Source: Porphyra umbilicalis (Eukaryota; Rhodophyta; Bangiophyceae; Bangiales; Bangiaceae). Taken from it: a stretch of 64,000 nt of DNA. The translations under genes and the position numbers were made by a program. Below the pieces are notes generated by a model that was given only the letters and a program-made list of their open reading frames with translations, was not told the DNA's origin and made no database searches. Location: contig KV918875.1 of the NCBI GenBank assembly GCA_002049455.2, forward strand, positions 77,128 to 141,127. The letters are read 5' to 3'. Below are positions 4,548-64,000 of this stretch, piece by piece. Each line of letters starts with the position of its first letter. Position 1 is the first letter of the stretch.

Positions 4548-5387
4548 TCAGAGCACCTGCGCCAACGCATCCCGCATCGCCCCCAGCTGCGCGTCCGTGT
4601 ACCCCCACTTGACCAAAAACGGCCCATACTCCCCCCCCGCCTCCCCGCGCACGCCGTCGAGCGCGCGCGCCACGCTCGCGCGCATCGCCTCGAGCGCCGC
4701 CCGTAAGGCGGGCACCGACGACGCCGCTGCCGGCGACGCTGCCGCGTCTCCCCCCCCCCAAGCAGCGCCGCCAGCATCGTCCGACTGCGGGTGGCGGTCA
4801 AGTCGCTGCCCGCCGCCAGGTCCGGCTTGCCCTCCCCCCGGTAGTGGACGACCATGGCGGACGCCATGACCAAGTTTTTGGCGAGCAGCGGCGGGACGAC
4901 GCCGCCGCCCCCGCCGTCCCCCGCCGCCGCCGCCGCCGCCGCGACCGCCCCGTGGAGGGCGCCCGCAACGGCCGCCGACGGGGGGGCGTCGGCAATGGCC
5001 ACGTCGGGGTCGCCGAGGTACGAGACGAAAAATCCGCGCGCGCCGTTGCTCGACTGCAGCAGCGCGTCGAGGAGCCCCGCTTCGGCGGGGGTGGGGGGGG
5101 GGGGGGGGACCCCCCGAGCGCCACACACAGCTCCCGCGCGATATCCACGCAGCGCATGAAGGAGGCGCCGGCGGTGACTTCGGCGGTTGCCGCCGTGGGG
5201 TCCCAGGGGGACGCTGCGGCGGGAGACGAGGGGCCGGCCGCGGCCGACATGGTTGGGGGGGGGGGGGCGCCCGCCGCCGCGCCGCGCCAACGACCACCGG
5301 GGGGAGGCGGGTGCCCGCGGCCAGGCGTCGCAGCGGCAGCCGGGGGGAGAAGAGGGTGCGGCTCAGCAGGGGAGAGGCAAAGGCCAT
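4548..5387 (-). CDS. Unknown organelle-targeted protein, frame changes at homopolymers
   Basis: Reading on the minus strand from the ATG at 5385-5387, a coherent protein appears only if the frame changes at three homopolymers: G/C runs at 5255-5267 (13), 5093-5108 (16) and 4750-4758 (9). The N-terminus MAFASPLLSRTLFSPRLPLR resembles a plastid or mitochondrial transit peptide. Later segments are non-repetitive and helical: SFMRCVDIARELCVALGG, GARGFFVSYLGDPDVAIAD, LLAKNLVMASAMVVHYRGEG and YGPFLVKWGYTDAQLGAMRD, ending at the TGA at 4548. The four pieces abut exactly at the runs, which argues for one gene of about 270 residues. I do not recognise the family with certainty; the middle part resembles short hypothetical proteins of cyanobacteria and algae. 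Sequencing or slippage error in the runs is the simplest explanation. Confidence 0.6.
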   Translation of the reverse strand: MAFASPLLSRTLFSPRLPLRRLAAGTRLPPVVVGAARRRAPPPPQPCRPRPAPRLPPQRPPGTPRRQPPKSPPAPPSCAAWISRGSCVWRSGGPPPPPHPRRSGAPRRAAAVEQRRARIFRLVPRRPRRGHCRRPPVGGRCGRPPRGGRGGGGGGGGRRGRRRRPAAARQKLGHGVRHGRPLPGGGQAGPGGGQRLDRHPQSDDAGGAAWGGGDAAASPAAASSVPALRAALEAMRASVARALDGVRGEAGGEYGPFLVKWGYTDAQLGAMRDALAQVL

Positions 5388-6970
5388 GACGTGGAGAAGG
5401 TGAGGGGGGGGGGGGCACGCGCAGGGACAGGGGGAGCGCCGTTGGACGGGGCGGGCGCCCGGAATACACTGCGCGGGACGGTGATGGGACGGGGGAGCGC
5501 CCGGCTGACCTGGCCGCTGGAAGGTGCGCGGGTACGCCATGACGTGCCCAAGTTCGGCAAGACACAAGATCAAGTCTCCTGTGCGAATCCAGCCGAGCAT
5601 GTACCGTACAGCGGGGATTTCTATACATACAGTGGGGAAAACAGTTTACGGTCGGATTGGGCACGCCTCGCCCGCCTTTTTTCCCATGGTCCGGACCGTG
5701 CTCCGCCTCCAGGCCAGGACGTCCTGGCCTAGAGGCGGAGCGCCGTGCTGCCGCCACGGTGCCGCGGCCCGCCGCTGGCCGGGGGGCGGGCGCCGTCATG
5801 GCGGCGCGAGCGGCTGCCGCCGCGGCGGCGGGCGCGTCTGGGGCGGTGCGCCCCCTGCCCCCCGCGCCGCCGTGGCGCGTGGCAGAGAGCGGCTGTGGCG
5901 GCGATACGCGTCGGCGGCAGCGCGGCGCGTCTGTCGGTTTGGGCAGTCGGGCGGCGCCTCCGACGCGGGGTGGGGGGGGGGGGGGGCGTCCCGTCGGTTG
6001 CGGGCCTGGGGCGGGCCCCCACCCCGCCCGCTGCACGTGCGCGCGGCAGGGCCAAGGGGCGGGCAAAGGCGCGCCGCCCGCTGCGGTGGGGCCAACCCCA
6101 CCGCGGCAGCAGCGGGCGGGGTGCGGTCGACCGGCGGCGCCACCCCCGCGCGCCGCCCGACCGCCTCGCCCCCCACGCCCCGCCAGTGCTAGACGCCCGC
6201 GCCGTTTGCGGCCGCCGCGCGTCCCCCCCGCGCAAGAGACCCTGCACAGGCCCGAGGCGGAGCACCCCCGCGACCGCGTTGCCCGCCCACACGCCAGCAC
6301 CGACGAGGAGGGCGACGATCCATCCGCGGGCGCGGCGGTGGCGCAAGCCCCGGTGGGCACTCAACCCCACATGGGCTTGGGTCCCGACGCCCCGGCGGCG
6401 GGGCGGTGCGCCGACGGGGGCGGCGCGTTGGGTGGTGGCCGCCGCCCGCAGCCCGCCGCGCGCGGCACGCACGCGGTCCTGACGGCGGCGACGGACGGCT
6501 ACCGCGCGGGCACACCCCCACCCCCGCCGACGGTGGGGAGCCGCCGCGGGCCCCACGGGCGGGGGCCGCGTGCGCCCCCGCCGCGAGGCAGCTCCGCCAC
6601 GCCCCCGCCGCCCCGTCGCGCCGCCGCTCCCCGGCGGCAGCGCGGGCCGACCGCCGCCGCGCGGCGCCGCGGACCGCGCGGGCGGCGGGGGTGGAGCCCC
6701 GCCCGCGGGCGGGCGGCGGGGCCGCGCGGCGCGGCGCGGCGCGACGCGGCACCGCGGGGGCGGCGCGGCGCCCGCGGTCGGCCCCCCCCGCCTCGTGGCG
6801 GCAGCGCGCAGTCGACGAGGGGGGGGGGGGGGGGGGGTTGGCCCGACGCGGGGGGTTCCCCCGCGGGCGCAACGCCCAACCGCGGGGGGCGCCCCGCGGG
6901 CCCCCCCCGCCGCCGCCGACGGCGCCGTCGGCGCGCCGTCGGGCGGGCGGCGGCGGCGGCGGCACCCGCC

Positions 6971-8066: not shown

Positions 8067-11000
8067 ATGCGCTTCCGGCGCGCCCTCAAAAGCGCCGCCG
8101 TCTACACGGTCGCGTCGGCCTTTGTCTACGTCCCCGCCCTGACGGCCACCCTTCGCTCCTCCTTCCTCTTTGTGCTCGTCACGGTTGTCATCAACCCGGC
8201 CGGCGTGGCCGTCGGCGCCGCCCTCGGCGGCGTCTCGCGCGCGGCCGCGGGCGCGGCGCTCGGCGTCGGCGCGCTTGCGGGCCTCGGGCAGCTGGCGGGC
8301 AGCCGCCCCGCCCTCGCCGTGTGCTTTGGCGCGTATGTGTACCTCCCGTCGTACGTGCGGGCGGCCAACCCGGCGCTGACCGTGCCGACGCTCCTCTCCA
8401 TGCTCGTGCCCGCGGCAGGGTTGTGGCCAATGGGGGTGGCGGGCGCGTTTGACGCGGAGCTCGTGGCCGAGGCGGCCGTCGCCATCTTTGTCGGCCTCGG
8501 CTTGTCGCTCGTCGGCAGTTTGGTGCTCGCCCCCGAGTACGCAACGGCGACGGCGAGCGCCAAATTCACCGCCTTCCTCACCTCCACCGCCGACGCGCTG
8601 CGCGCGTTTGGGGATGAGTACCTGTATCTCCCGGGCGACGGGGGGGGCGGCGGTGTGGGCACGGGCGACGACGACGGCGCCGACTCGTCGTCGGCGGCGC
8701 CGCCGTCGGCCACGGTGGCCGACGACGACGATGCCAAGGCGCGCCTGTCGGCCGCCCGCCGCAACGCCGTCGACGCGATGGACGCGGCGCTCGGCGCCCT
8801 CGCGCCCGCCGTCCAAGGGGTACTCCTCGAGCGCGCGGACCTCGACGTCGGCACCCTGCAGGGCGCCCTCGCCATCTGCCAGCGCATCCAACGCACGCTC
8901 TCGGCGGCGGTGGTGACGCTCCCCTTCCTCCGCCACGCCACCGACGACGATGACTTTTTCCGCCGCTCCCGCGCGTGCTTCCTCGGCCGCGTCGGCGCGC
9001 CCGCGCGGTCGCTCTTTGTCGGCCTCGCCGACTACCTGGACGAGAGCGCCACCTACTTTGCCGACCCGCGGGGGCGGGGGCACTGCGTCGGCCGCCTGCG
9101 CGCGTCGACCGACACGCTGCACGGGCGGATGGGCGCGTACCGGCGGGCGCACCAGCGGGGGCTCACCGCCCTCTGGCGGGAGCCCCTCACCCCCGCCACG
9201 GGCAGCGACGGCAGCGGCAGTGGCGGCGGCGGCGGCGGCGGCGGCGGGGACGACGGCCGCCCGGCCGACGTGGCCACCGAAGACCGCAACCTCCTCCGGT
9301 GGGAAAAGATCACGCGCGGGGCGGGCCTCCGCTACGCGGTGCAGGGCCTCGTCGGCTGCTGCGCCGAGCTGTCGTCCCTCCTCGACGCCGCGCACGCGTC
9401 GCGGCCGGCGGGTCGCGCGCGCGTCGCGCGGCGCCTCGGCGCCATCCGCACCGCGTTTTTGCCCGCCGCGGTGCGGCACCCGGGGGGGGTCCTCGCGGCG
9501 CTCCGCCGCCGCGTGCGGGGGGTGGGGCGCCTGCCACCGCAGCGGGGGGGGGGGGCCGTCCACGGGGGGGTGCCCGACCCCGGGGGGGGGGGGGGGGGAG
9601 GGGGACCTCATCAGTGACGCGGGCAGCTTCGCGTCGGGCGGCGGCGGACCTCGTGGCGGCAGTGACGGCAGCAGCGGCGGCGGCAGCGGCGGCGGCGACG
9701 GCGGCGGCGGTCGCCGCGGTGGTCCCCGCGGGGGGCGGGGCGGCGAGGCGGTGCGGTCGCCGCGGCGGGCGCCGACCTCCCCCGACACGACCCCGTGGCG
9801 CGAGCGCGTCGGCAAAGCGTGGGCGGTCGCCCGCCACTTTGCGCACGTGCTCCTCCGCGCCGCCGTGTACGACACGGCCGGCCGGTACGCGCTCAAGCTG
9901 TCGGCGTGCGTGACGGTGGTGTTTGCGCTCTTCCTCGCCTCCTCAACGAGCGAGTGGACGGTGCGGTGGGGCGGCAACGCCACCCTCCTCGTCGTCCTCG
10001 TGCACTCGGACCCGACCGTCGGGGGGGGGATCCAGCGCATGTTTTTTCTCACCGTTGGCGCCCTCTTTTCGGCCGGCTGGGCGTGGGCGACCACCCGCCT
10101 GGCGGTGCTGGCGGCCACGACGGACGGGGTGCCCGGCGCGCGGGAGCTCCTCGCCCTCCCCGTCGTCTTGGTGTCCATGGCGCTCTTCTCCACGGCCTTT
10201 TTTTACATCATTGCCAAGCAGAGCCGCTTCTCCTACGTCGGCATCATCTGCGCGGTCGTTGGCCAGGCGATTGTGTACCCCGCGTACCTCTACTTGCGCG
10301 CCCTCGACGGCCCCGTCGACGTGGCCGCCGTCGACGACTTTACCCAAACGCGCCTGTCGGGCACCGCCCTGGCGCTCGGCGTCATTAGCGTCTCGCAGCT
10401 GCTGCTCTACCCCAACCTCGCGCGCAACCGCATCAAGGCCGACCTCGCCGACGCGCTCCTCCGCACGCACGCCGTGTACTTGCTGCTGACGTCTTCCCGC
10501 GCCGCCGAGGCGGGCGACGCGTCGCGGACGACAACGACGGCGGCGTTGCTCGCCGAGGAGCGCGCCCTCGCCGACGACGTTGGCGCGTTGCGGGTGCAGC
10601 TCGGCTTTGCAGTGGCGGAGCCGCGCCTCGAAGCGCCCTACCCCGCCGCCATCATGGGCGCCCTCCTCACCAACCTCGAGGCCGTCCTCGACCACCTCAC
10701 CTTTGCGTCGCTCATCCTGCAGGGCGGCGTGGAGCGCGTGCGCCACGGGGAGGTGCGGGGGAACCTCGCGGCCCTCCGCGTCGCCGTGTCGGTGCAGCTG
10801 TTTGCCATTGCGGCGGCGGTGCGGGGGGGGATGGCCCTCCCGCCCCGCCTCCCCGACGCGCTCCGCATCCGCCGCAAGCTCCTCGCGTCGATTGTGTACC
10901 ACGTGCAGCGCGCGCACGCCGAGGCCACGGGGGGGGCGCCCCCCCGGCGGGGGACCAACGCGGAGGGCGACCCGGGGGGGGGGTGCCCCCGGACACGGGG

Positions 11001-53733: not shown

Positions 53734-53736
53734 TCA

Positions 53737-53765
53737 GAGCACACCCAACAACGTCGGTTGCGAAC
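53737..53765. repeat. Left TIR of Harbinger element
   Basis: 29 bp, perfect inverted match to 63879-63907. Confidence 0.97.
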
Positions 53766-54010
53766 CGCTTTTGCGTATTATTCGTTAAACGTGGCATATT
53801 TGCCAGTTATGGGCAGAGGTATGGGAAAACCGGTCATCCCACCAACGTCGCGAACCAGATCTGCGAACCGAGCTACTGGTGGGCCAGATATAAGTCCAAC
53901 CGGATAATATGGCGCTGGTTCGCAGGAGGTTCGCATTTTTCCATCGGCCGACCATACCACTGACGTTTGGGCAGACGTTTGTGCATTTCCGAACGTTTTG
54001 CGAACCGAAT
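53755..54010. promoter_or_regulatory. Left subterminal GCGAACC motif cluster
   Basis: The motif TTGCGAACC or its complement GGTTCGCA occurs about six times (near 53758, 53849, 53863, 53918, 53928 and 53998), in both orientations. The right end carries the same motif (near 63690, 63790, 63862, 63878). Subterminal motif clusters are normally binding sites for the transposase or the Myb-like partner; that role is inferred. Confidence 0.6.
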
Positions 54011-54827
54011 CTGTCTACAATTGTGTCTAAACGGGGGTCAAACACCCAAATCGGGACGATCGCAGACAAACACACGTTGCGTTGACGATCGCACAGGCGT
54101 CTCGAGCTCTGATATTCATGAGCATGCGGTCGCGAGTGGCCGCAGATTCCGTTCGAGGCGCAGGCGGCGCTCATTGCCGGGCCCTGTGGGGGGGGGGGCC
54201 GGCGGGACACCGTTTTTTCCTGGTGGACATCCGCCGCCACGCGCGATTCTGGGTCGGCCCCCCCACGGCTGAACGGTTTGATTAGGGGGGGGGGGCCGCC
54301 TAGAGGCACTGTCGCATGGGTTGGCGCGCAGCCCCAATCGGTCGTCCAGCGGAATTCTTTGGCGGGGTGGTCCCCAGTTGACGCGCTGCTGGTGCCACCA
54401 ACCTGCGCTGGGAGCCAATCGGGGGGGGGTTCCGCGCAGCGCAACATTGTGTGGCCGGCATGTGCCTGTCCGCGCGCAGCCGCACCCGCGGGAATGGGCC
54501 GTGCATGGGGGTTTTCAGGCAGCGCCGCGCAGCCCACATTATTGGTCACGCGGCCGCCCGGGACCTGCCAATCGCGCTTTCTGTGGGGGGGGGGTGCGGA
54601 GCAACAGATCGGCGCGGTGCGGACGCCACCAGCGGCGCGTCGACCACACCGTCGTCGTCGGGGGCAGCGCGATTGCGGCACCGCCGTCGTCGGCGTCGTC
54701 CATCCCGTTTCTCCGTTCTGCCCGTCTCCTTCGCCGGCGCAGCGGCCGTGAGCGGCCGTGTTGACGGCCGCCTTTGCGGCCGCTCCTGCGGCCGCTCTAG
54801 CTCTCGTTACGTCGGCTGCACTGGTGG
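54011..54827. other. Left non-coding region of Harbinger element
   Basis: Leader and promoter region of the transposase gene. GC-rich with G runs; it ends with GCGGCCGC octamers (54,772-54,796) shortly before the start codon. Confidence 0.5.
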
Positions 54828-57800
54828 ATGGAGATGGACGCGTCCACAGATGATGGGTCTGGGTCGTCGAGCGATGACGGCCGCGGGCAGTCGGAGGGCT
54901 CCGCGGACGAGCTGCTTGCGGCCGTCATCGGAGCGCGATCTCTGTTCCTAATGCGCCGTCATCGCAGGAATGCGGCGCAGCGAGCGCGCAGACGGCGTTT
55001 TGTCGGGTCTGTGGCCGGGCGGCGTCCCAACCGGCCACGTGATTTCGACCAGGGTATGCGCGGCATCATGCGGGATTATTTTGGTGTGGATGGGCAGCCG
55101 CCTGTGTATGGAGAAGAGACGTTTGAGCGTCGCTTCCATGTGCCACGGTCTGTTTTTATGCGCATTTATGAGGCCATCCGGGACCGGCCATTTTGGCGGC
55201 AGAGCATCAATGCGACGGGGCGGCCACAAGCTTATGCTCTGCAGAAGCTGGTGGCCGCCTTCCGTGTCCTCGCGTACGGGGAGTCGTATGATCGTGCGGA
55301 TGAGTATGTCCGGCTTTCCAAGTCTACAATTGAGGTGGCCACGAAGAAGCTGATTGAGTTTATTGTTGAGAAGTGGGAGCCCGTCTACCTGCGGCCTCCT
55401 AACGACGAGGAGGTCAAGCGCATGCTGGAGCGCAACGCAGCACGGGGCATGCCGGGATGCATCGGCAGCCTCGATTGCTCGCACTGGGAGTGGGCCGCGT
55501 GCCCAAAGGGGCTTGCTGGGCAGTATCAGAACCGCAAGAAGCGGCGCTCCATTGTCATGGAGACGGTTTGTGATGAGGACCTTTACATCTGGCATTTCTT
55601 TATCGGGGCGCCGGGGAGCCTCAATGACCTCAACGTGTTACGTATCTTACCGTTGTATTTTGATGTGGTGGAGGGTGTGTGGCCGCCGAAGTCTTTCTCT
55701 TTCTGTGTTAACGGTCGTTCTCGTCGTTTGTCGTATTATCTTACTGACGGTGTTTATCCCAAGTATCCATTTTTTGTGTCTCCGTACCCCAACCCCATCA
55801 CACCCGCAGAAAAATGTTTCAACCGGCTCCAGGAAGCGCTGCGCAAGGATGTCGAGCGGCTCTACGGGGTTATGACCGCAAGATTCCACATTCTTCTACA
55901 CCCTGGCCGATTTGGCTCTGTAGAGCAGATGATGCTTGCCGGCAAGGCGGCCGCCATTCTGCACAACATGGTCGTTGAGCAGAGGCGTGGCCGGTATGTC
56001 GCTCATCAGCGTATGGCAGCGGCGGCGGCCGCAAGGGATGGGGAACCTGCGGCCGCCGCCGATGATGGCCATGCCGTTGGCGCAGGCGACGTCGGCTGGG
56101 CTGGCAATACGGGAACAGGTGTGGCGGCCGCCGGCGATGTCGAATCGGCGGCGGCCGTTGGCGGAGACCCCTTCGCCGGCGCAGTTGGGCAGGGAGGAGC
56201 TGGTGCCGATGACGCCGCTGCCGCGGCCGCCGGCCTGGGCGCCGCGGCGGCGGCCGCCGGCGATCGATCGCCAGCGGGCATCGGCGGTGGCGGAGCAGAT
56301 GATGGAGCGGACGCCACCGCTGCGGCCGCCGGTCTGGTCGGCCCGGCGGCGGCCGCCGGCGGTGGCTCGCCAGCGGGCGTGCGTGGCGGAGAAGGAGCTG
56401 GGAGAGCGGGCGCCGCCGCCGCGGCCGCCAACTTTGGTGGCTCGGCGGCCGCCGCCGGCGGCGACTCGCCAGCGGGCGTGCGTGGCGGAGAAGGAGCTGG
56501 TGGTGCGGCCGCCGCCACCGCGGCCGCCGACTTTGATGGATCGGCGGCCGCCGCTGGCGGCGACTCGCCAGCGGGCGTGCGTGGGGGAGACGGCGCTGGG
56601 GGTGCGGGCGCCACCGCCGCGGCCGCCGACTTTCGTGGCTCGGCGGCCGCCCCTGCGGCGACTCGCCAGAGGGCGTGCAGGGTGGAGAAGGAGCTGGTGG
56701 AGTAGGCAGCGCCGCCGCGGCTGCCAACTTTGGTGGCTCGGCGGCCGCCGCTGGCGGCGTCTCGCCAACGGGCGTGCGTGGAGGAGAGGGCGCTGGTGGT
56801 GCGGGCGCCACCGCCGCGGCCGCCGACTTTGGTGGCTTGGCGGCCGCCGCTGGCGGCGTCGCGCCAGCGGGCGTGCGTTGGGGAGACGGAGCAGGTGGTG
56901 TGGGCGCCTCGGCCGCGGCCGCCGACTTTGGTGGCTCGGCGGCCGCCGCCGACGGCGACTCGCCAGCGGGCGTGCGGGGTGGAGAAGGAGCTGGTGGAGC
57001 AGGCAGCGCCGCCGCGGCCGCCAACTTTGGTGGCTCGGCGGCCGCCTCTGGCGGCGTCTTGCCAACGGGCGTGCGTGGAGGAGAGGGCGCTGGTCGTGCG
57101 GGCGCCACCGCCGCGGCCGCCGACTTTGTTGGCTCGGCGGCCGCCGCCGGAGGCTACTCGCCATCATGCGGGGGTGACGTCGGATGTGTTGATGGTGCGG
57201 ACGCTGCCGCCGCGGCCGCCAACTTTGGTGGCTCGGCGGCCGCCGCCGGCGGCGACTCGCCAGCGGGCGTGCGTGGGGGAGACGGCGCTGGGGGTGCAGG
57301 CGGCACCGCCGCGGCCGCCGACTTTGGTGGCTCGGCGGCCGCCGCCGGCGGCGACTGGCCAGCGGGCGTGCGTGGAGGAGAGGGCGCTGGTCGTGCGGGC
57401 GCCGCCGCCGCGGCCGCCGGCTTTGGTGGCTTTGCGGCCGCCGCTGGCGGCGACTCGCCAGCGGGCGTGCGTTCAAATGATGCAGCTCGTGGTGCGGGCG
57501 CCGCCGCCGCGGCCGCCACTTTTGGTGGCTCGGCGGCCGCCGCTGGCGGCCACTCGCCAGCGGGCGTGCGTGGAGGAGATGCAGCTGGTGGTGCAGGCGC
57601 CACCGCCGCGGCCGCCAACTTTGGTGGCTCGGCGGCCGCCGCCGGCGGCGACTCGCCAGCGGGCGGGCGCGGAGGTGACGGAGCTGGTGGTGCGGGCGCC
57701 GCCGCCGCGGCCGCCGGCTTTGGTGGCTCGGCGGCCGCCGCCGGCGGCGACTCGCCAGCGGGTGTGCGCGGAGGTGACGGAGCTGGTGGTGCGGGCGCCG

Positions 57801-58387
57801 CCGCCGCGGTCGCCAACTTTGGTGCCTCGGCGGCCGCCGCCGGCGGCGACTCGCCAGCGGGCGTGCGTGGAGGTGAAGGAGCTGGTGGTGCGGCCGCCGC
57901 CGCCGCGGCCGCCGTCTTTGGTAGCTCGGCGGCCGCCGCCGGCGGCGAATCGCCAGCGGGCGTGCGAGGAGGAGAGGGCGCTGGTGGTGCGGGCGCCGCC
58001 GCCGCGGCCGCCGACTTTAATGGTTCGGCGGCCTCCGCTGGTGGCCACTTGCCGGCGGGCGTGCGTGTCGGGGAGGGAGCTGGTGGGGCGGGCGCCGCCG
58101 CCGCGGCCGCCGGCCTTGTCGGTCCGCGTGCGGTTGCGGGAGGTGGCTCCACAGCCGCAGGACCGGCCGCTGATGCGGCCGCCGCGGCGGCCGCAGCTGC
58201 CCGTTTGGCGGCTTTGCCGCACGCTCCCGTGGTTTTGGGCGGCGCGGACCCCCCGCCGGCTTCTTTTCTGTTCCAGTTGCGGGCGCGCCAGACCGCCACG
58301 GATAGAGCAGAGTTCTTCTGTCTCCGCGACGACCTGGCGGCCCATATCTTTGATGATCGCGGGTCCCTTCTGGAGCCGTATTTGTAG
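54828..58387 (+). CDS. Harbinger transposase with 33-residue repeat expansion (one frame change)
   Basis: From ATG 54828, an acidic N-terminus and Arg-rich segment (RRHRRNAAQRARRRRF) precede the DDE_4-type core: FHVPRSVFMRIYEAIRDRPF, LVAAFRVLAYGESYDRADEY, first Asp in CIGSLDCSHWEWAACP, second Asp in YYLTDGVYPKYPFFV, Glu in RKDVERLYGVMTARF, then AILHNMVVEQRRG. A normal Harbinger transposase ends soon after with an LR-DL--H motif. Here that end (FFCLRDDLAAHIFDDRGSLL, stop at 58385-58387) is displaced by about 20 tandem 33-residue units of the type DSPAGVRGGEGAGGAGAAAA (99 bp each, 56,260-58,150). A one-base deletion near 56,655, inside the fifth unit, changes the frame; without it the protein would be about 1,187 residues, with it the frame stops at 56705. 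Confidence 0.9.
56260..58150. repeat. ~20 x 99-bp tandem repeat inside the transposase gene
   Basis: Units contain GGCTCGGCGGCCGCCGCCGG and GACTCGCCAGCGGGCGTGCG. They encode Ala/Gly-rich 33-residue units in the transposase frame. Every unit has one GCGGCCGC-type core. Confidence 0.92.
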
Positions 58388-58790
58388 CGTTCAATGGTTT
58401 TTTTTTTGCCATCATGGCTTTTTTTTTTCCTCACACATTGGCACGTCGGCGGACGCCACCACGCCGACCCGGGATAGGAAAGACGCTTGGACGGCCTCCG
58501 TTCTATCTAGAAAGACGGACGAGGCCGCCGCTCTGTATGGCGTAGGCGGATGTCCACCAGTGGCTTATACTTTCAAGCTGCAGCATGACTGGTGTACAAG
58601 TGAGAGGATTTTGCCGTGCTCGCTTCTCGGACGGAGTCGCAGGGTCGGACAGAGTCGGTGTGTAGGAAAAAAAAACCCGGCGAAGGGGAAAAAAAAACCG
58701 TGTATGATTGTCGTACAATAGTCGATGCAGTAGTCGAGCACATCACACGCGCAGAGACCCCACCGTCACAAATATGAACAGAGATACAAC
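58388..58790. other. Intergenic region between convergent Harbinger genes
   Basis: Contains T runs at 58,398-58,430 just after the transposase stop and A runs at 58,666-58,697, consistent with 3' ends facing each other. No gene. Confidence 0.55.
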
Positions 58791-61388
58791 TCAAGCCAAG
58801 TCACCATCCGCGCAATCGCTGCCACTGGTACCACAGGCAGCGTCCTCCTCGTCGTCGCCCGATTCGCCAGCGGCCGCATTATGCGGCCGCGGCGTCATGG
58901 AACGGCTTGGACCCGATACGGTGTTCCTGGCCGCCGTGAAGCGGGCCTGCTTGGTCTGCAACGAGTTCCAGCCTCGCCCCTTCCTCCGCTTGACCGAGCC
59001 GATACCGGCCGAGGCCGCAGCGCGGCGGGCAACGGCCGCGCTTGCGGCCGCGGCTGGTGATGCGCCGGTACGCGGCGACGCGTCGACGCCGTCACTCGGA
59101 GAAGATGAAGACGGAGGCAATGCGGCCGCACTTGCGGCCGCGCCAGACGCCAGGGACCCGACTGTGTTGTCAGCGGCCGGCGCCAACGCGGCCGCTTCGC
59201 CGCCGTTCACAGCCACGCCGCCAGGAGTACCGGGCGCTCCACCAGACCCGGGAGACGCGGCCGCACCACCACTTGGAGAAACTGCAGATGCTGGCGATGC
59301 GGCCGCACTTGGAGCCCTACCTGCGGCCGCACCCGCCGCCGCCTCAGCGGCCGCGGTAGCGGCCGCAGAGGTGCCCGACATAGACGGCGCAGTTGTTGTC
59401 GAGCGCGAAGCGACCCGTGCCTCCGCGGCCTTGGCCTTGCGCAGTCTGGCGTTGGAGAGCAGAAGCCGCCGCTCCATCTCGTTCTTGCGCCACTGCTCCG
59501 CCTCACCCGTCTCACGCACGTCCTTGGCCTTCCAAAAGTCAATGTCGGCGCGCTCGATGGCCGTCTCAGATAAGGACTTGAGGGCGGCCGCCGTCGTGGC
59601 GGCCTCCCTTTGGATAGCAATGTCAGTCGAGGCCGCCGCTTTGGCGGCCTTCGTACCGATAGGCCGCTCTTGGAAGAGGCCGCGCCGCCTACCGACCGTG
59701 GAGCTCGAGTCGTCGTCCGAAATGTCCTCGACGCCCCCGTCTGGCGCAGGACGGCGGCCGCGAGCGGCGGCCGCCGTGGCGGCCGCCCCCGACGCGCCGC
59801 TGAACTTGTCCAACTTGCGCATGACCGTCCAACACTTGACCCAATCGGCTCCTCTCGTGCCGCCCTTCTTCACCACCAAGACCGGCGCGTCCCCGTCGTT
59901 GTCGTCCGCTTGCACGGCCTCATACAGGTTCTCGGCGTCAAAGTGCGCGGTGGCCATGCGTATCAGGTCCTCGTCGGTCAAATTGCCCGTCATCTGGCGA
60001 CGCCCGACGGCCACCATAGAGGATGAAAAGCGTTGAAAGTTCTTGAAAACTGAATAGCGCAGTTCGCGGTCGATGGCAGTGTCCGTGCGCGCCCTGCGTC
60101 CAGGGCCCATCGGGCAATGGGACTTGTACCCGTTGACGATTGCAGCGGCAAAGGTTGCTCGGCTCTGGTCGGTACCGACCACCGGGTCTTGCGCCACCGC
60201 CAACCAGGCCTGGCAGAGAGCTACTCGCTCTGCCTCGGTCCATCCTCGGCCGCGTCCTCTGCCCCTGGCGGTGGGGGACTCGTTGTCTCCAGCGGCGACG
60301 GCGTCGGCTGTGGCAGCGGCCGCTGAGGAGGAAGGGGGACCGCCACCGTCCCCGCCTCCACCGGCGGCCGCTGCACCCCCTCCATGTCCGTCCCCGCCTG
60401 GGCCGCCGGTGGGTGCACGCCCTCCATCGCCGACTCCGCTTCCGCCGCCGCGGCCGCCGTCGGCGGCCGCGGCTCCGGCTGTGTTGCCAGATCCACTCCC
60501 GTGAGCGGCCGCTGAGGCGGCCGCTCCGTGACCTGATCGGCTGGGCGACGTGACGCCGCGGGACTCTGCGTCGCCGCCATCGCCTCGTGTAGCGTCAGAG
60601 GCCGGGAGACCGGCGGTGGCTGCAGCGACAGCCTGTTCAGCCCCGCGCACCTCTGCAACCCCTGCACCGCGGCCGCCGGGAGGGCAGCGCCCTCCGAGTG
60701 CTCCGCGCCTGCCCGCCCCGCGGCCGCGGACTGCAAACCCGGCATCGGCGTCGACGGTAGCGTCTCCGACGCCGCGTTCACCGTGTCCGCCGGCGCCGAT
60801 TGGTCCGCCGAGTGCATGTCCACGTCCGCGGCCTCGCCCAAGCCCCGATGACCCCCCCGCGACGAGGTTGTATCCGCGGCCTGCGACGCTACAGCTTGGA
60901 GGGGCCTCGAAATCTCCGTCAGCGCGTCGGTCTGCGGCCGTGGCGGCGGCGTCGGGGGCCGCCCGATCGGCGGCCCCGCCGGCCGCGGCCGAGGAGGCGG
61001 CAGGTGACCTTGTCTTATCTGCTGCCGCCCGTGCCGCCGCGCCTCCCACCAATTGCTCTCCTGCAGGCAGTCCGGACTGCCCTCCCGCAGCAGCCATTGC
61101 GCAGTCCGGTCCCCGTTGTGCGCTCTGCGGGCAAGCTCCTGCAGCTCCCGCAATTCCCCCGCGTCCACCGGTGGAGTTGGTGGCCGCGCTCGCTCCGAGA
61201 GACTTGGCGGACTGGATGTTCCGACAGGTGGCCACGTCGGCGCAGGTGGTCCTTGACGCGGCGGGCTTGGGGGACTCGGCGGCCGCTGGGGCGACGGCCG
61301 CCGGGTTGCAGAGGGTGGACCTTGACCAAGTGGTCTTGGCGGCCGCGCCGGGGGCGGCCGCCAGGCGGACCCAGATGCGCCTTGACAA
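58791..61388 (-). CDS. Harbinger Myb/SANT-like partner protein
   Basis: The minus-strand frame ends at 58791. The conserved part (about 60,265 to 59,800) reads GRGWTEAERVALCQAWLAVA, DPVVGTDQSRATFAAAIVNG, AIDRELRYSVFKNFQRFSSS and ADWVKCWTVMRKLDKFSGA: the Trp-containing Myb/SANT-like trihelix followed by the NAM-associated-type region found in the second protein of Harbinger elements, which binds transposon DNA and helps the transposase. A helical stretch follows (ALKSLSETAIERADIDFWKA, QWRKNEMERRLLLSNARLRK), then an Ala/Ser/Pro-rich tail. The start is uncertain: the only in-frame ATGs upstream of the domain lie at 61,388 and about 61,100, and residues 1-370 are Ala/Gly low complexity overlapping another minus-strand ORF. 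The gene might instead begin in that ORF through a frame change or intron. Confidence 0.75.
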   Translation of the reverse strand: MSRRIWVRLAAAPGAAAKTTWSRSTLCNPAAVAPAAAESPKPAASRTTCADVATCRNIQSAKSLGASAATNSTGGRGGIAGAAGACPQSAQRGPDCAMAAAGGQSGLPAGEQLVGGAAARAAADKTRSPAASSAAAGGAADRAAPDAAATAADRRADGDFEAPPSCSVAGRGYNLVAGGSSGLGRGRGRGHALGGPIGAGGHGERGVGDATVDADAGFAVRGRGAGRRGALGGRCPPGGRGAGVAEVRGAEQAVAAATAGLPASDATRGDGGDAESRGVTSPSRSGHGAAASAAAHGSGSGNTAGAAAADGGRGGGSGVGDGGRAPTGGPGGDGHGGGAAAAGGGGDGGGPPSSSAAAATADAVAAGDNESPTARGRGRGRGWTEAERVALCQAWLAVAQDPVVGTDQSRATFAAAIVNGYKSHCPMGPGRRARTDTAIDRELRYSVFKNFQRFSSSMVAVGRRQMTGNLTDEDLIRMATAHFDAENLYEAVQADDNDGDAPVLVVKKGGTRGADWVKCWTVMRKLDKFSGASGAAATAAAARGRRPAPDGGVEDISDDDSSSTVGRRRGLFQERPIGTKAAKAAASTDIAIQREAATTAAALKSLSETAIERADIDFWKAKDVRETGEAEQWRKNEMERRLLLSNARLRKAKAAEARVASRSTTTAPSMSGTSAAATAAAEAAAGAAAGRAPSAAASPASAVSPSGGAAASPGSGGAPGTPGGVAVNGGEAAALAPAADNTVGSLASGAAASAAALPPSSSSPSDGVDASPRTGASPAAAASAAVARRAAASAGIGSVKRRKGRGWNSLQTKQARFTAARNTVSGPSRSMTPRPHNAAAGESGDDEEDAACGTSGSDCADGDLA

Positions 61389-62236
61389 GGGGGGCTCCCC
61401 AGACCCGATGATGACGGCCGGACTTGGTCACGGGGCGCACTTGCTCGAGGTGGGCTCGCCGGTGGCTGCCAGCCTCGCGACGGCTGGCATGCGCGAGTGG
61501 AACTCGGCGGCCGCTGCGGCGACGGCCGCCAATCGGGGGGACGCAGGCCTTGACGGGGCGGGCTCGGCGGCCGCTGCGGCGGCGGCCGCCAATCGGGGGG
61601 ATGCAGGCCTTGACGGGGCGGGCTCGGCAGCCGCTGCGGCGGCGGCCGCCAATCGGGGGGACGCAGGCCTTGACGGGGCGGGCTCGGCAGCCGCTGCGGC
61701 GACGGCCGCCAATCGGGGGGACGCAGGCCTTGACGAAGCGGGCTCGGCGGCCGCTGCGGCGGCGGCCGCCAATCGGGGGGACGCAGGCCTTGACGAGGCG
61801 GGCTCGGCAGCCGCTGCGGCGGCGGCCGCCAATCGGGGGGACGCAGGCCTTGACGAAGCGGGCTCGGCGGCCGCTGCGGCGGCGGCCGCCAATCGGGGGC
61901 ACGCAGGCCTTGACGAAGCGGGCTCGGCGGCCGCTGCGGCGGCGGCCGCCAATCGGGGGGACGCGGGTCTTGACGATGCGGGCTCGGCGGTCCTGACGGC
62001 AGTGGACCGAGGCAAGGAGGGTGTACAGGTTGAGGTGGTGGCGCCTCGGCCCCAGATGCTCGTGGTGGAGCCTCTGATATGGGCCGAGTGCGCGCCGCCC
62101 ACGGACACGGGCAGGATGGCGCGCACAGGGGATGATCGTCACCGACGCCCAGGGTGCGTCGGCACATACGGCAGAACTGCCGCAGACCGCGCCGGCGCTC
62201 CGTTTTTGAGATCGGACGCGGCGCGGGAAGAACCAT
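60221..62236 (-). CDS. Harbinger-carried Cys/Pro-rich protein of unknown function
   Basis: A 671-residue minus-strand ORF from ATG at 62234-62236. The N-terminus has a cysteine cluster (FCRMCRRTLGVGDDHPLCAP, then SCPCPW) that could bind zinc. Eight near-identical 20-residue repeats (RQGLRPPDWRPPPQRPPSPL) follow, then a non-repetitive part with DAGELRELQELARRAHNGDR and LLREGSPDCLQESNWWEARR, a second Pro-rich section and an acidic tail (GAEDAAEDGPRQSE). The non-repetitive parts look truly coding. It overlaps the upstream portion of the Myb-like frame and stops just where that protein's DNA-binding domain begins, so it could be a separate gene or the true N-terminus joined by a frame change or splicing. 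The frame stays open to 62995, but that part looks non-coding. Confidence 0.55.
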   Translation of the reverse strand: MVLPAPRPISKTERRRGLRQFCRMCRRTLGVGDDHPLCAPSCPCPWAARTRPISEAPPRASGAEAPPPQPVHPPCLGPLPSGPPSPHRQDPRPPDWRPPPQRPPSPLRQGLRAPDWRPPPQRPPSPLRQGLRPPDWRPPPQRLPSPPRQGLRPPDWRPPPQRPPSPLRQGLRPPDWRPSPQRLPSPPRQGLRPPDWRPPPQRLPSPPRQGLHPPDWRPPPQRPPSPPRQGLRPPDWRPSPQRPPSSTRACQPSRGWQPPASPPRASAPRDQVRPSSSGLGSPPCQGASGSAWRPPPARPPRPLGQGPPSATRRPSPQRPPSPPSPPRQGPPAPTWPPVGTSSPPSLSERARPPTPPVDAGELRELQELARRAHNGDRTAQWLLREGSPDCLQESNWWEARRHGRQQIRQGHLPPPRPRPAGPPIGRPPTPPPRPQTDALTEISRPLQAVASQAADTTSSRGGHRGLGEAADVDMHSADQSAPADTVNAASETLPSTPMPGLQSAAAGRAGAEHSEGAALPAAAVQGLQRCAGLNRLSLQPPPVSRPLTLHEAMAATQSPAASRRPADQVTERPPQRPLTGVDLATQPEPRPPTAAAAAEAESAMEGVHPPAAQAGTDMEGVQRPPVEAGTVAVPLPPQRPLPQPTPSPLETTSPPPPGAEDAAEDGPRQSE
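61501..61980. repeat. 8 x 60-bp tandem repeat
   Basis: Eight consecutive units of exactly 60 bp, each with TCGGCGGCCGCTGCGGC and CGCCAATCGGGGGGACGCAG. A length divisible by three keeps all frames open; the minus frame gives the 20-residue Pro-rich unit, and the plus frame an Ala-rich unit. Confidence 0.97.
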
Positions 62237-63878
62237 GCTGCCGCAACGGCCGGTCCTCGCACAGTCCGACGCCTCGTGGGCAGGGAGCGAAAGGCGGCCG
62301 CTTCTGCACAGAGCGGCCGCCAAAAAGGTGAGGCAGCCCGCCTTCCGCCGCACCCTCGTCCAAAAACGGTCGGGACCAGCGGCGGGCACAGAGAAAGACG
62401 GCCGCCAAGAGCAGCGCACACGCGCACACGGTGCCGCCGCGGCCGCCAACGACAACGGCGGCCGCGAAAAAGCGCGCGGACACGCACGTCCTCCCTCCCG
62501 TGATGCAACGCGGCCGCCAACGAAAACGGCGGCCGCTACAAAGCACGCGCGCTCGACGTCTCCTCTCCCGCGCTGCAACGGCGGCCGCTGGCGACGATGG
62601 CGGCCGCACGCACGCACGCGGATGCACAATGCTCCTCTCTCGGCGCCGAACGGGTCACGGCCCCGGTGCGGTTGCCCCCGGCGCTGCCACCCCGCCCACA
62701 AATGGTCCACAAACAGAGTCTGCCCCCAACGCAAGCGACCGTTCGAGACGATGCGCGGCGCCCCCACCCTGCCACTGCCTAGACGATGACAGAGGGGCCC
62801 GCAGGGCTCCACCGCGGCCGTTCTCGACGGTCTCGCAGGTGGCACAACCCCACCGTACGCCCCAAAAACAGGCGGCCGCCCTCGATTGCCCCCTCGCTCG
62901 GGGGGAATCGGGCGGCCGCCTTTCTTGCCAGTCACGCTCAGGGGCCCTGCAGGCCACGCCAAGCGTGGCACGCGTGGCCCGCAGGCCTCGCTCAAACGCC
63001 ACAGAGCTCCCTGCGCGACATGTGGCGCCCAGTCGGCCGTTCACGGTGGACGGCCAATCGAGGGTGTGGCCGGGGAGGTGCACAGCGAGAGTGCGTCTGA
63101 CCAATGAGCATGCGGATCGCTGACACAAAAATCGGAGGGGGTCGCACGATTCTGCGGCTCCGCAAGGGACGCGATCGTGCGTGGCCCCTGCCGCGTCTCG
63201 GCAGCCTTGCAGGCCGGGCCGCCCGACCGCCGCAGGCGGCCGCGTGGGAGCCCGCCCTGCGTCACGGTGACCGGCGGACACCACGCGGCCGCCTCACAGG
63301 CGCTTCAGAACAGAATGCTCCAGTGTCGATCGAGGCAAAAGCGCCACCAGATTGCACGCATGCTGTACGTCTGCCGGCTGAACGGACCAATGAGAGACCT
63401 ACAAATCACTGCTGTCAGTCGCGAGATGCGACAGCGCCGCGAGATGATGCGAGATGCTGCCAACGTGTCTCCGACATTTGTGCGTTTGACCTCGTCGTGT
63501 CTACTCGATCGGAAGAATTTGCAGCCATTTGAAGCCTATCGCGCTGCGTGTCTCACTTGACCGGCTCATTTGCTGACGATTGGGGTCCAGATCAGCGTGA
63601 TCGCGAGGTCGATCGATGGCCTGTTTGCTTGAAATGTCGCACTGGACTGTCGGAATGTGGACATCTCACGGGAAAGCCGCTCGCAAGCTCCAGTTCGCAG
63701 GTCGACAACCCAGCAACGTCACCTTCTCCGTTTCCCATACACTGCGATCTGCCGACAGAAGAAAACAAGTACTCTGGATCCGAGCGGAGCGGGTTCGCAG
63801 AGCCTGCGCATATCGCTGCCGAAACGCTTTTGGCCACTCATAGGCGCACACGTTGCGCTCTTAAACGGTTCGCAGATC
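62237..63878. other. Right non-coding region of Harbinger element with GCGGCCGC sites
   Basis: From about 62,290 to 63,290 the octamer GCGGCCGC or its near forms recur every few tens of bases. Farther right the composition is normal, and TTCGCA motifs appear near the TIR. A plus frame 63177-63560 ends in a non-repetitive stretch (MLYVCRLNGPMRDLQITAVS), but too little supports it. Confidence 0.45.
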
Positions 63879-63907
63879 GTTCGCAACCGACGTTGTTGGG
63901 TGTGCTC
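63879..63907. repeat. Right TIR of Harbinger element
   Basis: 29 bp, perfect inverted match to 53737-53765. TCA follows. Confidence 0.97.
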
Positions 63908-63910
63908 TCA

Positions 63911-64000
63911 GGTGCGAGCACACAGCGCGTTGATGAAATCTCGTGTCAGGTTCCAAGGTATCTGCAACAAGGCCGAACCGTATTGCTGCTCGACCCCTTT
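63911..64000. other. Right flank
   Basis: Ninety bases outside the Harbinger element; nothing recognised. Confidence 0.6.

What the first reader, a model, noticed from the sequence alone, without database searches (positions are those of the whole stretch)
53737..63907. Complete, apparently young, three-gene Harbinger element
Perfect 29-bp TIRs and a TCA duplication enclose a transposase, the expected Myb-like partner and a third protein not known from standard Harbinger elements. At 10.2 kb it is large for the superfamily. The duplication TCA departs from the usual TTA/TAA.
Basis: partly seen in the sequence, partly recalled or inferred. Interest (0 to 1): 0.8.

Follow-up and report, generated by a model that had tools for sequence, protein, structure and literature searches.

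The report
Algal jumping gene studded with palindromes
This is one copy of a PIF/Harbinger-type jumping gene from what looks like a red alga; its claimed third gene is perhaps the front end of the usual second gene, and the surprise is that the element is packed with about 96 exact copies of one 8-letter palindrome, which may be an array of protein-binding sites.

Summary
The element is real: 53737-63907, perfect 29-bp inverted repeats, TCA duplicated; 13 full-length copies including this one (9.4-11.4 kb) and a burst of ~3.7-kb deletion derivatives were fetched from an 84-Mb, probably Bangiales red-algal, genome. TCA is no departure: 26 of 27 distinct sites are T-N-A, the published classic Harbinger pattern. 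The copy is not intact: its transposase is frameshifted inside a 99-bp minisatellite (6 of 13 copies read through). The 'third protein' is partly real. A Cys-rich N-terminal domain is conserved upstream of the Myb-like gene in a family with 62%-identical transposases, but its long tail overlaps the Myb frame and is broken in 9 of 13 copies. I read it as the N-terminus of the Myb partner (about 0.5). The unreported finding is GCGGCCGC: 96 copies in the element (shuffles: mean 3.3, max 8), 41 outside tandem repeats (shuffle max 6), none in 5.8 kb of flanks. Two other sampled families with the Cys-rich domain share the excess; the family where it decayed does not. Another motif, TGCGAAC, lies almost only at the ends. 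I infer end sites for transposition plus an internal array for an element-encoded binding protein, comparable to VANDAL/VANC arrays.

The parts
53737..63907 (+). PIF/Harbinger-type element, 10,171 bp
53734..53736 (.). target-site duplication TCA, left copy
63908..63910 (.). target-site duplication TCA, right copy
53737..53765 (+). left 29-bp TIR
63879..63907 (-). right 29-bp TIR
53759..54005 (.). left cluster of five TGCGAAC motifs (53759, 53862, 53999 on +; 53918, 53929 on -)
63693..63885 (.). right cluster of four TGCGAAC motifs (63693, 63793, 63868, 63879, all on -)
54828..56705 (+). transposase, core frame (625 aa), frameshifted before its conserved C-terminus
55386..55988 (+). Plant_tran / DDE domain of the transposase (residues 187-387)
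56213..58112 (+). 99-bp minisatellite, 19 units, coding a 33-aa repeat between transposase core and C-terminus
56675..58387 (+). out-of-frame remainder of the transposase tail with the conserved C-terminus
   Evidence: the L049 transposase ends alike
58791..61388 (-). Myb/trihelix-like partner ORF
60033..60251 (-). Myb/SANT-like helical domain (model residues 24-96)
   Evidence: weak model
62093..62218 (-). Cys-rich putative zinc-binding domain (TERRRGLRQFCRMCRRTLGVGDDHPLCAPSCPCPWA)
   Evidence: zinc binding is inferred from the cysteines
61503..61990 (.). 60-bp minisatellite, 8 units
62438..62607 (.). 71-bp tandem repeat, 2.4 units
54550..63292 (.). span of the 96 GCGGCCGC octamers; none in the outer 813 bp (left) or 615 bp (right)

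Best explanation
A PIF/Harbinger DNA transposon of a Bangiales-type red alga with two tail-to-tail genes. Gene 1 is a DDE transposase. Gene 2 is a Myb/trihelix-like partner whose N-terminus is most likely the Cys-rich 'third' ORF, joined by splicing or another frame change that the genomic DNA does not show. The partner is inferred to bind TGCGAAC sites clustered in both ends and to bring the transposase there for cut-and-paste insertion at TNA. A second internal system of about 96 exact GCGGCCGC octamers, spread over coding and non-coding sequence and amplified by minisatellites, is inferred to be an array of binding sites for an element-encoded DNA-binding protein (best candidate: the Cys-rich domain) that acts on expression or silencing rather than on the cut ends. 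Shown: ends, TNA sites, deletion derivatives, transposase identity, both motif enrichments, conservation of the Cys-rich domain in position. Inferred: the joined gene, who binds which motif, and what the array does. This copy cannot make a full-length transposase from one frame and would depend on others.
For: TIR and TSD. PF04827. Convergent transposase and Myb pairs in other families of this genome (e.g. C30, C31, C35). Paralogous empty sites: 3 places match the left flank plus 12 bp beyond the insertion point, at 98%, with a single TCA. GCGGCCGC 96 vs shuffle mean 3.3, max 8; outside tandem repeats 41 vs mean 1.65, max 6, any 8-mer max 9; all 24 one-mismatch variants at most 8; 0 in about 5.8 kb of flanks of 29 copies. 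Ala-Ala-Ala is written GCGGCCGC 13 of 19 times vs 2.7 expected from codon use in the Myb ORF and 6 of 12 vs 1.4 in L053, but 1 of 9 vs 1.4 (L049) and 3 of 15 vs 2.2 (L050) where the domain has decayed. Other families with the domain: L051-L053 (20-21 vs shuffle max 5-6) and L057 (5 vs max 2). Octamer triplets are about 20 times denser in the 29 copies (54 in 193.5 kb) than in the genome as a whole (1144 in 83.8 Mb). TGCGAAC: 253 in the outer 300 bp of 29 copies, 3 in the 176 kb inside. Joined gene: the two ORFs form one 1258-aa ORF in copy C442b; if the Myb frame is coding through the overlap, the open ORF3 frame is expected by chance (P 0.34-0.64), whereas the reverse is not (P 0.0006-0.003).
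Against: Codon and GC-position scores favour the ORF3 frame, not the Myb frame, at 60.3-60.9 kb; there the reverse-frame test is also not decisive (P 0.10-0.24), and in L053 it is not decisive either (P 0.17-0.18). In 11 of 13 copies Cys domain and Myb are not in one frame; the in-frame state of C442a and C442b comes from a shared 25-bp insertion that I take as derived. No splice evidence. Among copies the Myb ORF (N/S 0.92-1.19) and ORF3 (1.07-1.09) show no purifying selection while the transposase core does (0.39-0.52); the Cys domain alone gives 0.59-0.86 on 9-12 changes, too few to tell. No Pfam match for the Cys domain or the Myb region; structure models weak. Most of the genome's 1144 octamer triplets (reversed-pattern control 309) lie outside the copies I hold (54 in 29 copies), so the motif is dense here but not exclusive. 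55 of the 96 octamers lie in tandem repeats. The domain-motif association rests on four groups, and a fifth, L058 (domain present), has 0 octamers in 321 bp.
Confidence: 0.5

Rival explanations
1. Three separate genes: the Cys-rich ORF from ATG 62236 is its own protein and overlaps an independently started Myb gene.
For: The domain is upstream of Myb but in another frame in L051-L053 too; the ORF3 frame has the coding-like GC and codon pattern at 60.3-60.9 kb; P0019 from a metagenome contig is predicted as a separate protein; single- and double-domain proteins occur elsewhere in this genome.
Against: The tail is broken or out of frame in 9 of 13 copies; in the Myb frame there is no ATG between the one at 61097 and the Myb domain; no purifying selection on ORF3 among copies (N/S 1.07-1.09), though the Myb ORF shows none either.
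Confidence: 0.3
2. GCGGCCGC is not a binding site: it is a by-product of Ala-rich minisatellites and GC-rich codon use.
For: 55 of 96 octamers lie in three tandem repeats; in the Myb ORF 13 of 15 sites are in the Ala-Ala-Ala phase.
Against: 41 outside the repeats vs shuffle max 6; present outside the main ORFs, left, right and upstream (3, 2 and 10 vs 0.2, 0.07 and 0.3 expected, the last partly in the 71-bp repeat); above codon-use expectation; the also Ala-rich L049/L050 family has no excess; the deletion derivative without the minisatellites has 17 vs shuffle max 5.
Confidence: 0.25
3. The octamers are sites for a host factor (activator, replication or chromatin protein), not for an element protein.
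For: The motif also clusters elsewhere in the genome, including short satellites.
Against: Its density follows the Cys-rich domain in four of the five groups sampled with a single domain or its remains, a small sample.
Confidence: 0.25
4. The window copy is a fresh, complete autonomous element.
For: Perfect TIRs and TSD; paralogous empty sites.
Against: Frameshifted transposase tail; 175 substitutions from the majority base over 10.2 kb.
Confidence: 0.07

Closest known systems
PIF/Harbinger superfamily (Ping/Pong, Harbinger3_DR)
   Same: DDE transposase plus a probable Myb-like partner, short TIRs, 3-bp duplication, deletion derivatives; subterminal sites for the partner are known for Harbinger3_DR (passage in PMC9710019).
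   Different: 10 kb; proteins about twice or more the published 400-500 and 300-400 aa (passage): transposase frame 961-1425 aa in the 6 read-through copies, Myb ORF 878 aa stop to stop; Cys-rich N-terminal ORF; internal octamer array.
Ectocarpus Harbinger families (PMC12477816)
   Same: Two tail-to-tail genes and the 'classic TNA' duplication (passages).
   Different: No octamer array or Cys-rich domain is mentioned for them in the passages I saw.
VANDAL21 / VANC anti-silencing system of Arabidopsis (PMC5735166)
   Same: Short motif at high density, spread by tandem repeats; an element-encoded protein reads it there (passages).
   Different: VANDAL is MULE-type (recalled); its motif lies mainly in non-coding regions and in one orientation. 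Here the motif is a palindrome, largely in coding repeats, its triplets are not confined to the element, and no binding or anti-silencing has been shown.

Membership tests
PIF/Harbinger | DDE transposase of the PIF type (PF04827/PF13359) | tested here: met
   E 2e-59 and 2e-11, both above cut-off
PIF/Harbinger | 3-bp duplication of the TNA/TWA type | tested here: met
   26 of 27 distinct sites TNA, 1 TAC; 1 of 29 copies (s442c) has unlike ends
PIF/Harbinger | short TIRs (25-50 bp) | tested here: met
   29 bp; range from a passage of PMC9179366
PIF/Harbinger | second gene with Myb/SANT/trihelix (MADF) domain | tested here: inconclusive
PIF/Harbinger | extended target preference around the TSD | tested here: inconclusive
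   weak C..TNAG.. tendency only (before four copies were turned round)
VANC-type anti-silencing system | dense short motif, specific to the element and spread by tandem repeats | tested here: inconclusive
   dense and in tandem repeats; but most octamer triplets of the genome lie outside the copies held
VANC-type anti-silencing system | element protein binds the motif and removes silencing | not testable with these tools
   needs binding and methylation data
VANC-type anti-silencing system | VANC protein homologue | not tested
   no VANC sequence was compared

The most novel reading that the evidence does not exclude
A red-algal Harbinger lineage has evolved its own sequence-specific identity system: a Cys-rich element protein that reads arrays of GCGGCCGC placed all through the element, in the coding minisatellites too, to counter silencing or coordinate its copies; gain and loss of the domain tracks gain and loss of the array.
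Probability: 0.2. Interest if true: 0.8.

Novelty: new variant of a known kind. Interest (0 to 1): 0.55.

Why it matters
If the octamer array is read by an element protein, motif-array systems like VANC would have arisen independently in another transposon superfamily and in red algae, and inside coding sequence. The prediction is simple to test with one protein and one 8-bp probe. If not, the element still shows how a single 8-bp word can be driven to about 30-fold excess across a transposon and kept in every copy examined.

Tried and rejected

Papers: one search (GCGGCCGC, transposable element, enriched, tandem repeat) listed one paper, on Drosophila Notch; one (Harbinger, three open reading frames, transposon) listed one, on maize; 36 and 91 (Harbinger with Porphyra or Rhodophyta) listed 3 and 6, none titled on such an element. 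No paper search for the Cys-rich domain was made. Other searches: 37, 41, 59, 60, 89. I saw listings, and passages of PMC9179366, PMC5735166, PMC2836001, PMC12477816 and PMC9710019; no paper was read whole, and the library lacks most subscription journals. So novelty in print is not established. A second, chosen-palindrome control for the genome-wide triplet count did not complete; only the tool's reversed-pattern control is reported.

Known slips: four short copies (s69, s80, s97, s319) were first read in the wrong orientation; the duplication counts are given after correction, so the tallies printed differ, and one search lacks those four. The pairwise identity is wrong for the same reason; one search gives 93.5-100%, mean 96.9, for 12 derivatives of 3.6-3.7 kb.
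Full report
What is there. The window lies at G000:C115:77128-141127 of an unnamed 83.8-Mb genome. Host identity is inferred: the only relatives with an organism name in the listings are from Porphyra umbilicalis (partner, 39%) and Pyropia yezoensis (transposase, 58%), both Bangiales (for the first; the second recalled); closer relatives (up to 94%) are unnamed metagenome proteins. The element is 53737-63907, with perfect 29-bp TIRs and TCA on both sides. The TIR occurs 143 times at up to 2 mismatches, control 0.

Copies. I analysed 29 copies with two ends, the window's included: 13 full-length (9,372-11,356 bp) and 16 shorter. 28 of 29 have matching 3-bp duplications (one, C442b, after moving the end by 1 bp); the 27 distinct sites give TTA 9, TCA 7, TGA 5, TAA 5, TAC 1. 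Most short copies are one derivative: element 1-1676, 4585-5726 and 9354-10171 joined, so they lack most of the catalytic core and the Myb domain; 12 of them (3.6-3.7 kb) are 93.5-100% identical. Two short copies sit directly beside another element and share a TAA with it. The window site exists empty at three paralogous places (98% over 79-82 bp, crossing the junction by 12 bp). The other 12 full copies are 95.5-98.3% identical to this one, so the family is recent but not brand-new.

Transposase. PF04827 and PF13359. Between the core and a conserved C-terminus, which the 638-aa transposase ORF of another family shares, sits a 99-bp minisatellite that codes 33-aa repeats. In the window copy a frameshift in the repeats separates core (54828-56705) from C-terminus (frame ending 58387). 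Core and whole C-terminus are in one frame in 6 of 13 copies. Across copies the core has fewer amino-acid changes than expected (N/S 0.39 counting every copy's change, binomial P 2e-5; 0.52 on 75 distinct changes). Myb (0.92-1.19) and ORF3 (1.07-1.09) do not; the Cys domain alone has 9-12 changes (0.59-0.86), too few.

Partner and 'third protein'. The Myb ORF is open over 877-878 aa stop to stop in 8 of 13 copies; the third ORF runs unbroken from the Cys motif to its end in 4 of 13. The Cys domain itself (83 aa) is found at 94-100% identity in 29 places, one with an internal stop. It is conserved in place, upstream of Myb on the same strand, at C35, C106 and C31, where the Myb regions are 38-39% identical and the transposases listed at C35 and C31 62%. 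It is recognisable but without most cysteines at C30 and C103. Other ORFs in this genome carry one or two such domains. Outside this genome one protein matched (P0019, 94%; 258 candidates scored). Whether it is the Myb protein's N-terminus is undecided: favours the Myb frame as the coding one through the overlap of the window copy (not decisive for 60,248-60,880 or for L053), favour ORF3 at 60.3-60.9 kb, and the one-ORF state of C442b looks derived.

Two motifs. TGCGAAC (either strand) occurs nine times in the window copy, all within 270 bp of the left or 215 bp of the right end; shuffled ends give a mean of 0.14, maximum 2. In 29 copies 253 lie in the outer 300 bp and 3 in 176 kb of interior. 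That is the layout expected of transposition sites; the Myb-like protein of Harbinger3_DR binds a 9-bp subterminal motif (passage in PMC9710019). GCGGCCGC behaves the opposite way: 96 copies between element positions 814 and 9556 and none nearer the ends. It is in excess in nine of the eleven sub-regions I cut (0 in the short convergent stretch and in the Cys-domain stretch), is present in all 29 copies (15-126 each), and stays in excess in the derivative that has lost the minisatellites (17 vs shuffle max 5). Exactness matters: no one-mismatch variant exceeds 8 against 41 exact outside repeats. In the tandem repeats, positions inside octamers vary about 4-6 times less among copies than positions outside (alignment of repeats is rough); outside repeats the difference is small and not convincing (26 of 4,472 vs 460 of 60,084 cells). 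Across the 19 units of the 99-bp repeat the octamer columns are 85-86% conserved against 75%.

Where else. Fetched loci of other families: L051-L053 (domain intact) 20-21 octamers in 2.6-2.7 kb, shuffle max 5-6; L057 (domain intact) 5 in 351 bp, max 2; L049 and L050 (domain decayed) 4 and 7 in 10 kb, within shuffles (max 8); L058 (domain present) 0 in 321 bp; L054-L056 (double domain) 0 in 451-551 bp, too short to tell. The rest of the window has 38 in 53.7 kb against 14.7 expected from dinucleotides, a mild excess. Genome-wide, triplets of the octamer number 1144 against 309 for the reversed pattern; the 29 copies hold 54 by my own count, about 20 times the genome's density but a small part of the total. 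Places were listed only for contigs 1-7; there five fall within 6 kb of the C7 transposase (62%), one 5 kb from the C1 one, none beside those of C3, C4 and C5 (two), and others lie in satellites and elsewhere. So the association is suggestive, from few families, and the motif is not exclusive.

Judgement. Ordinary: superfamily, ends, TNA duplication, tail-to-tail genes, deletion derivatives. New to me for this kind, with print not exhaustively searched: a Cys-rich domain tied in position to the partner gene, very long minisatellite-coded tails, and a two-tier motif layout with an internal 8-bp palindrome array. The domain is real but of unknown role; the array is statistically secure and its function inferred.

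Noticed in passing
G000 (whole genome): At least 144 scored places encode relatives of this transposase at 62-100% identity, and 150 encode relatives of the Myb partner: a very large Harbinger expansion (lower bounds).
   Followed up: partly
L054-L056 (C71, C108, C41): Repeated ORFs (409-482 aa at these three places) carry two tandem copies of the Cys-rich CPCPW domain; they look like another element or gene family.
   Followed up: no
G000:C586:17312-17316 and C80:126992-126996: Two copies of the family sit end to end with a single shared TAA between them, as if one had inserted into the other's duplication.
   Followed up: partly
G000:C3:327293-327520 and C3:414766-414938: Satellites with steps of 22 bp and 15 bp that carry GCGGCCGC in each step.
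   Followed up: no
window 63916-64000: The right flank from about 63919 is part of a high-copy repeat (about 35 near-identical hits among 40 scored); just before it stand letters like the element's own TIR start (GAGCACAC).
   Followed up: no
window 53737-63907: Transposase core shows purifying selection among copies while the Myb partner does not, as if the partner were supplied in trans.
   Followed up: partly
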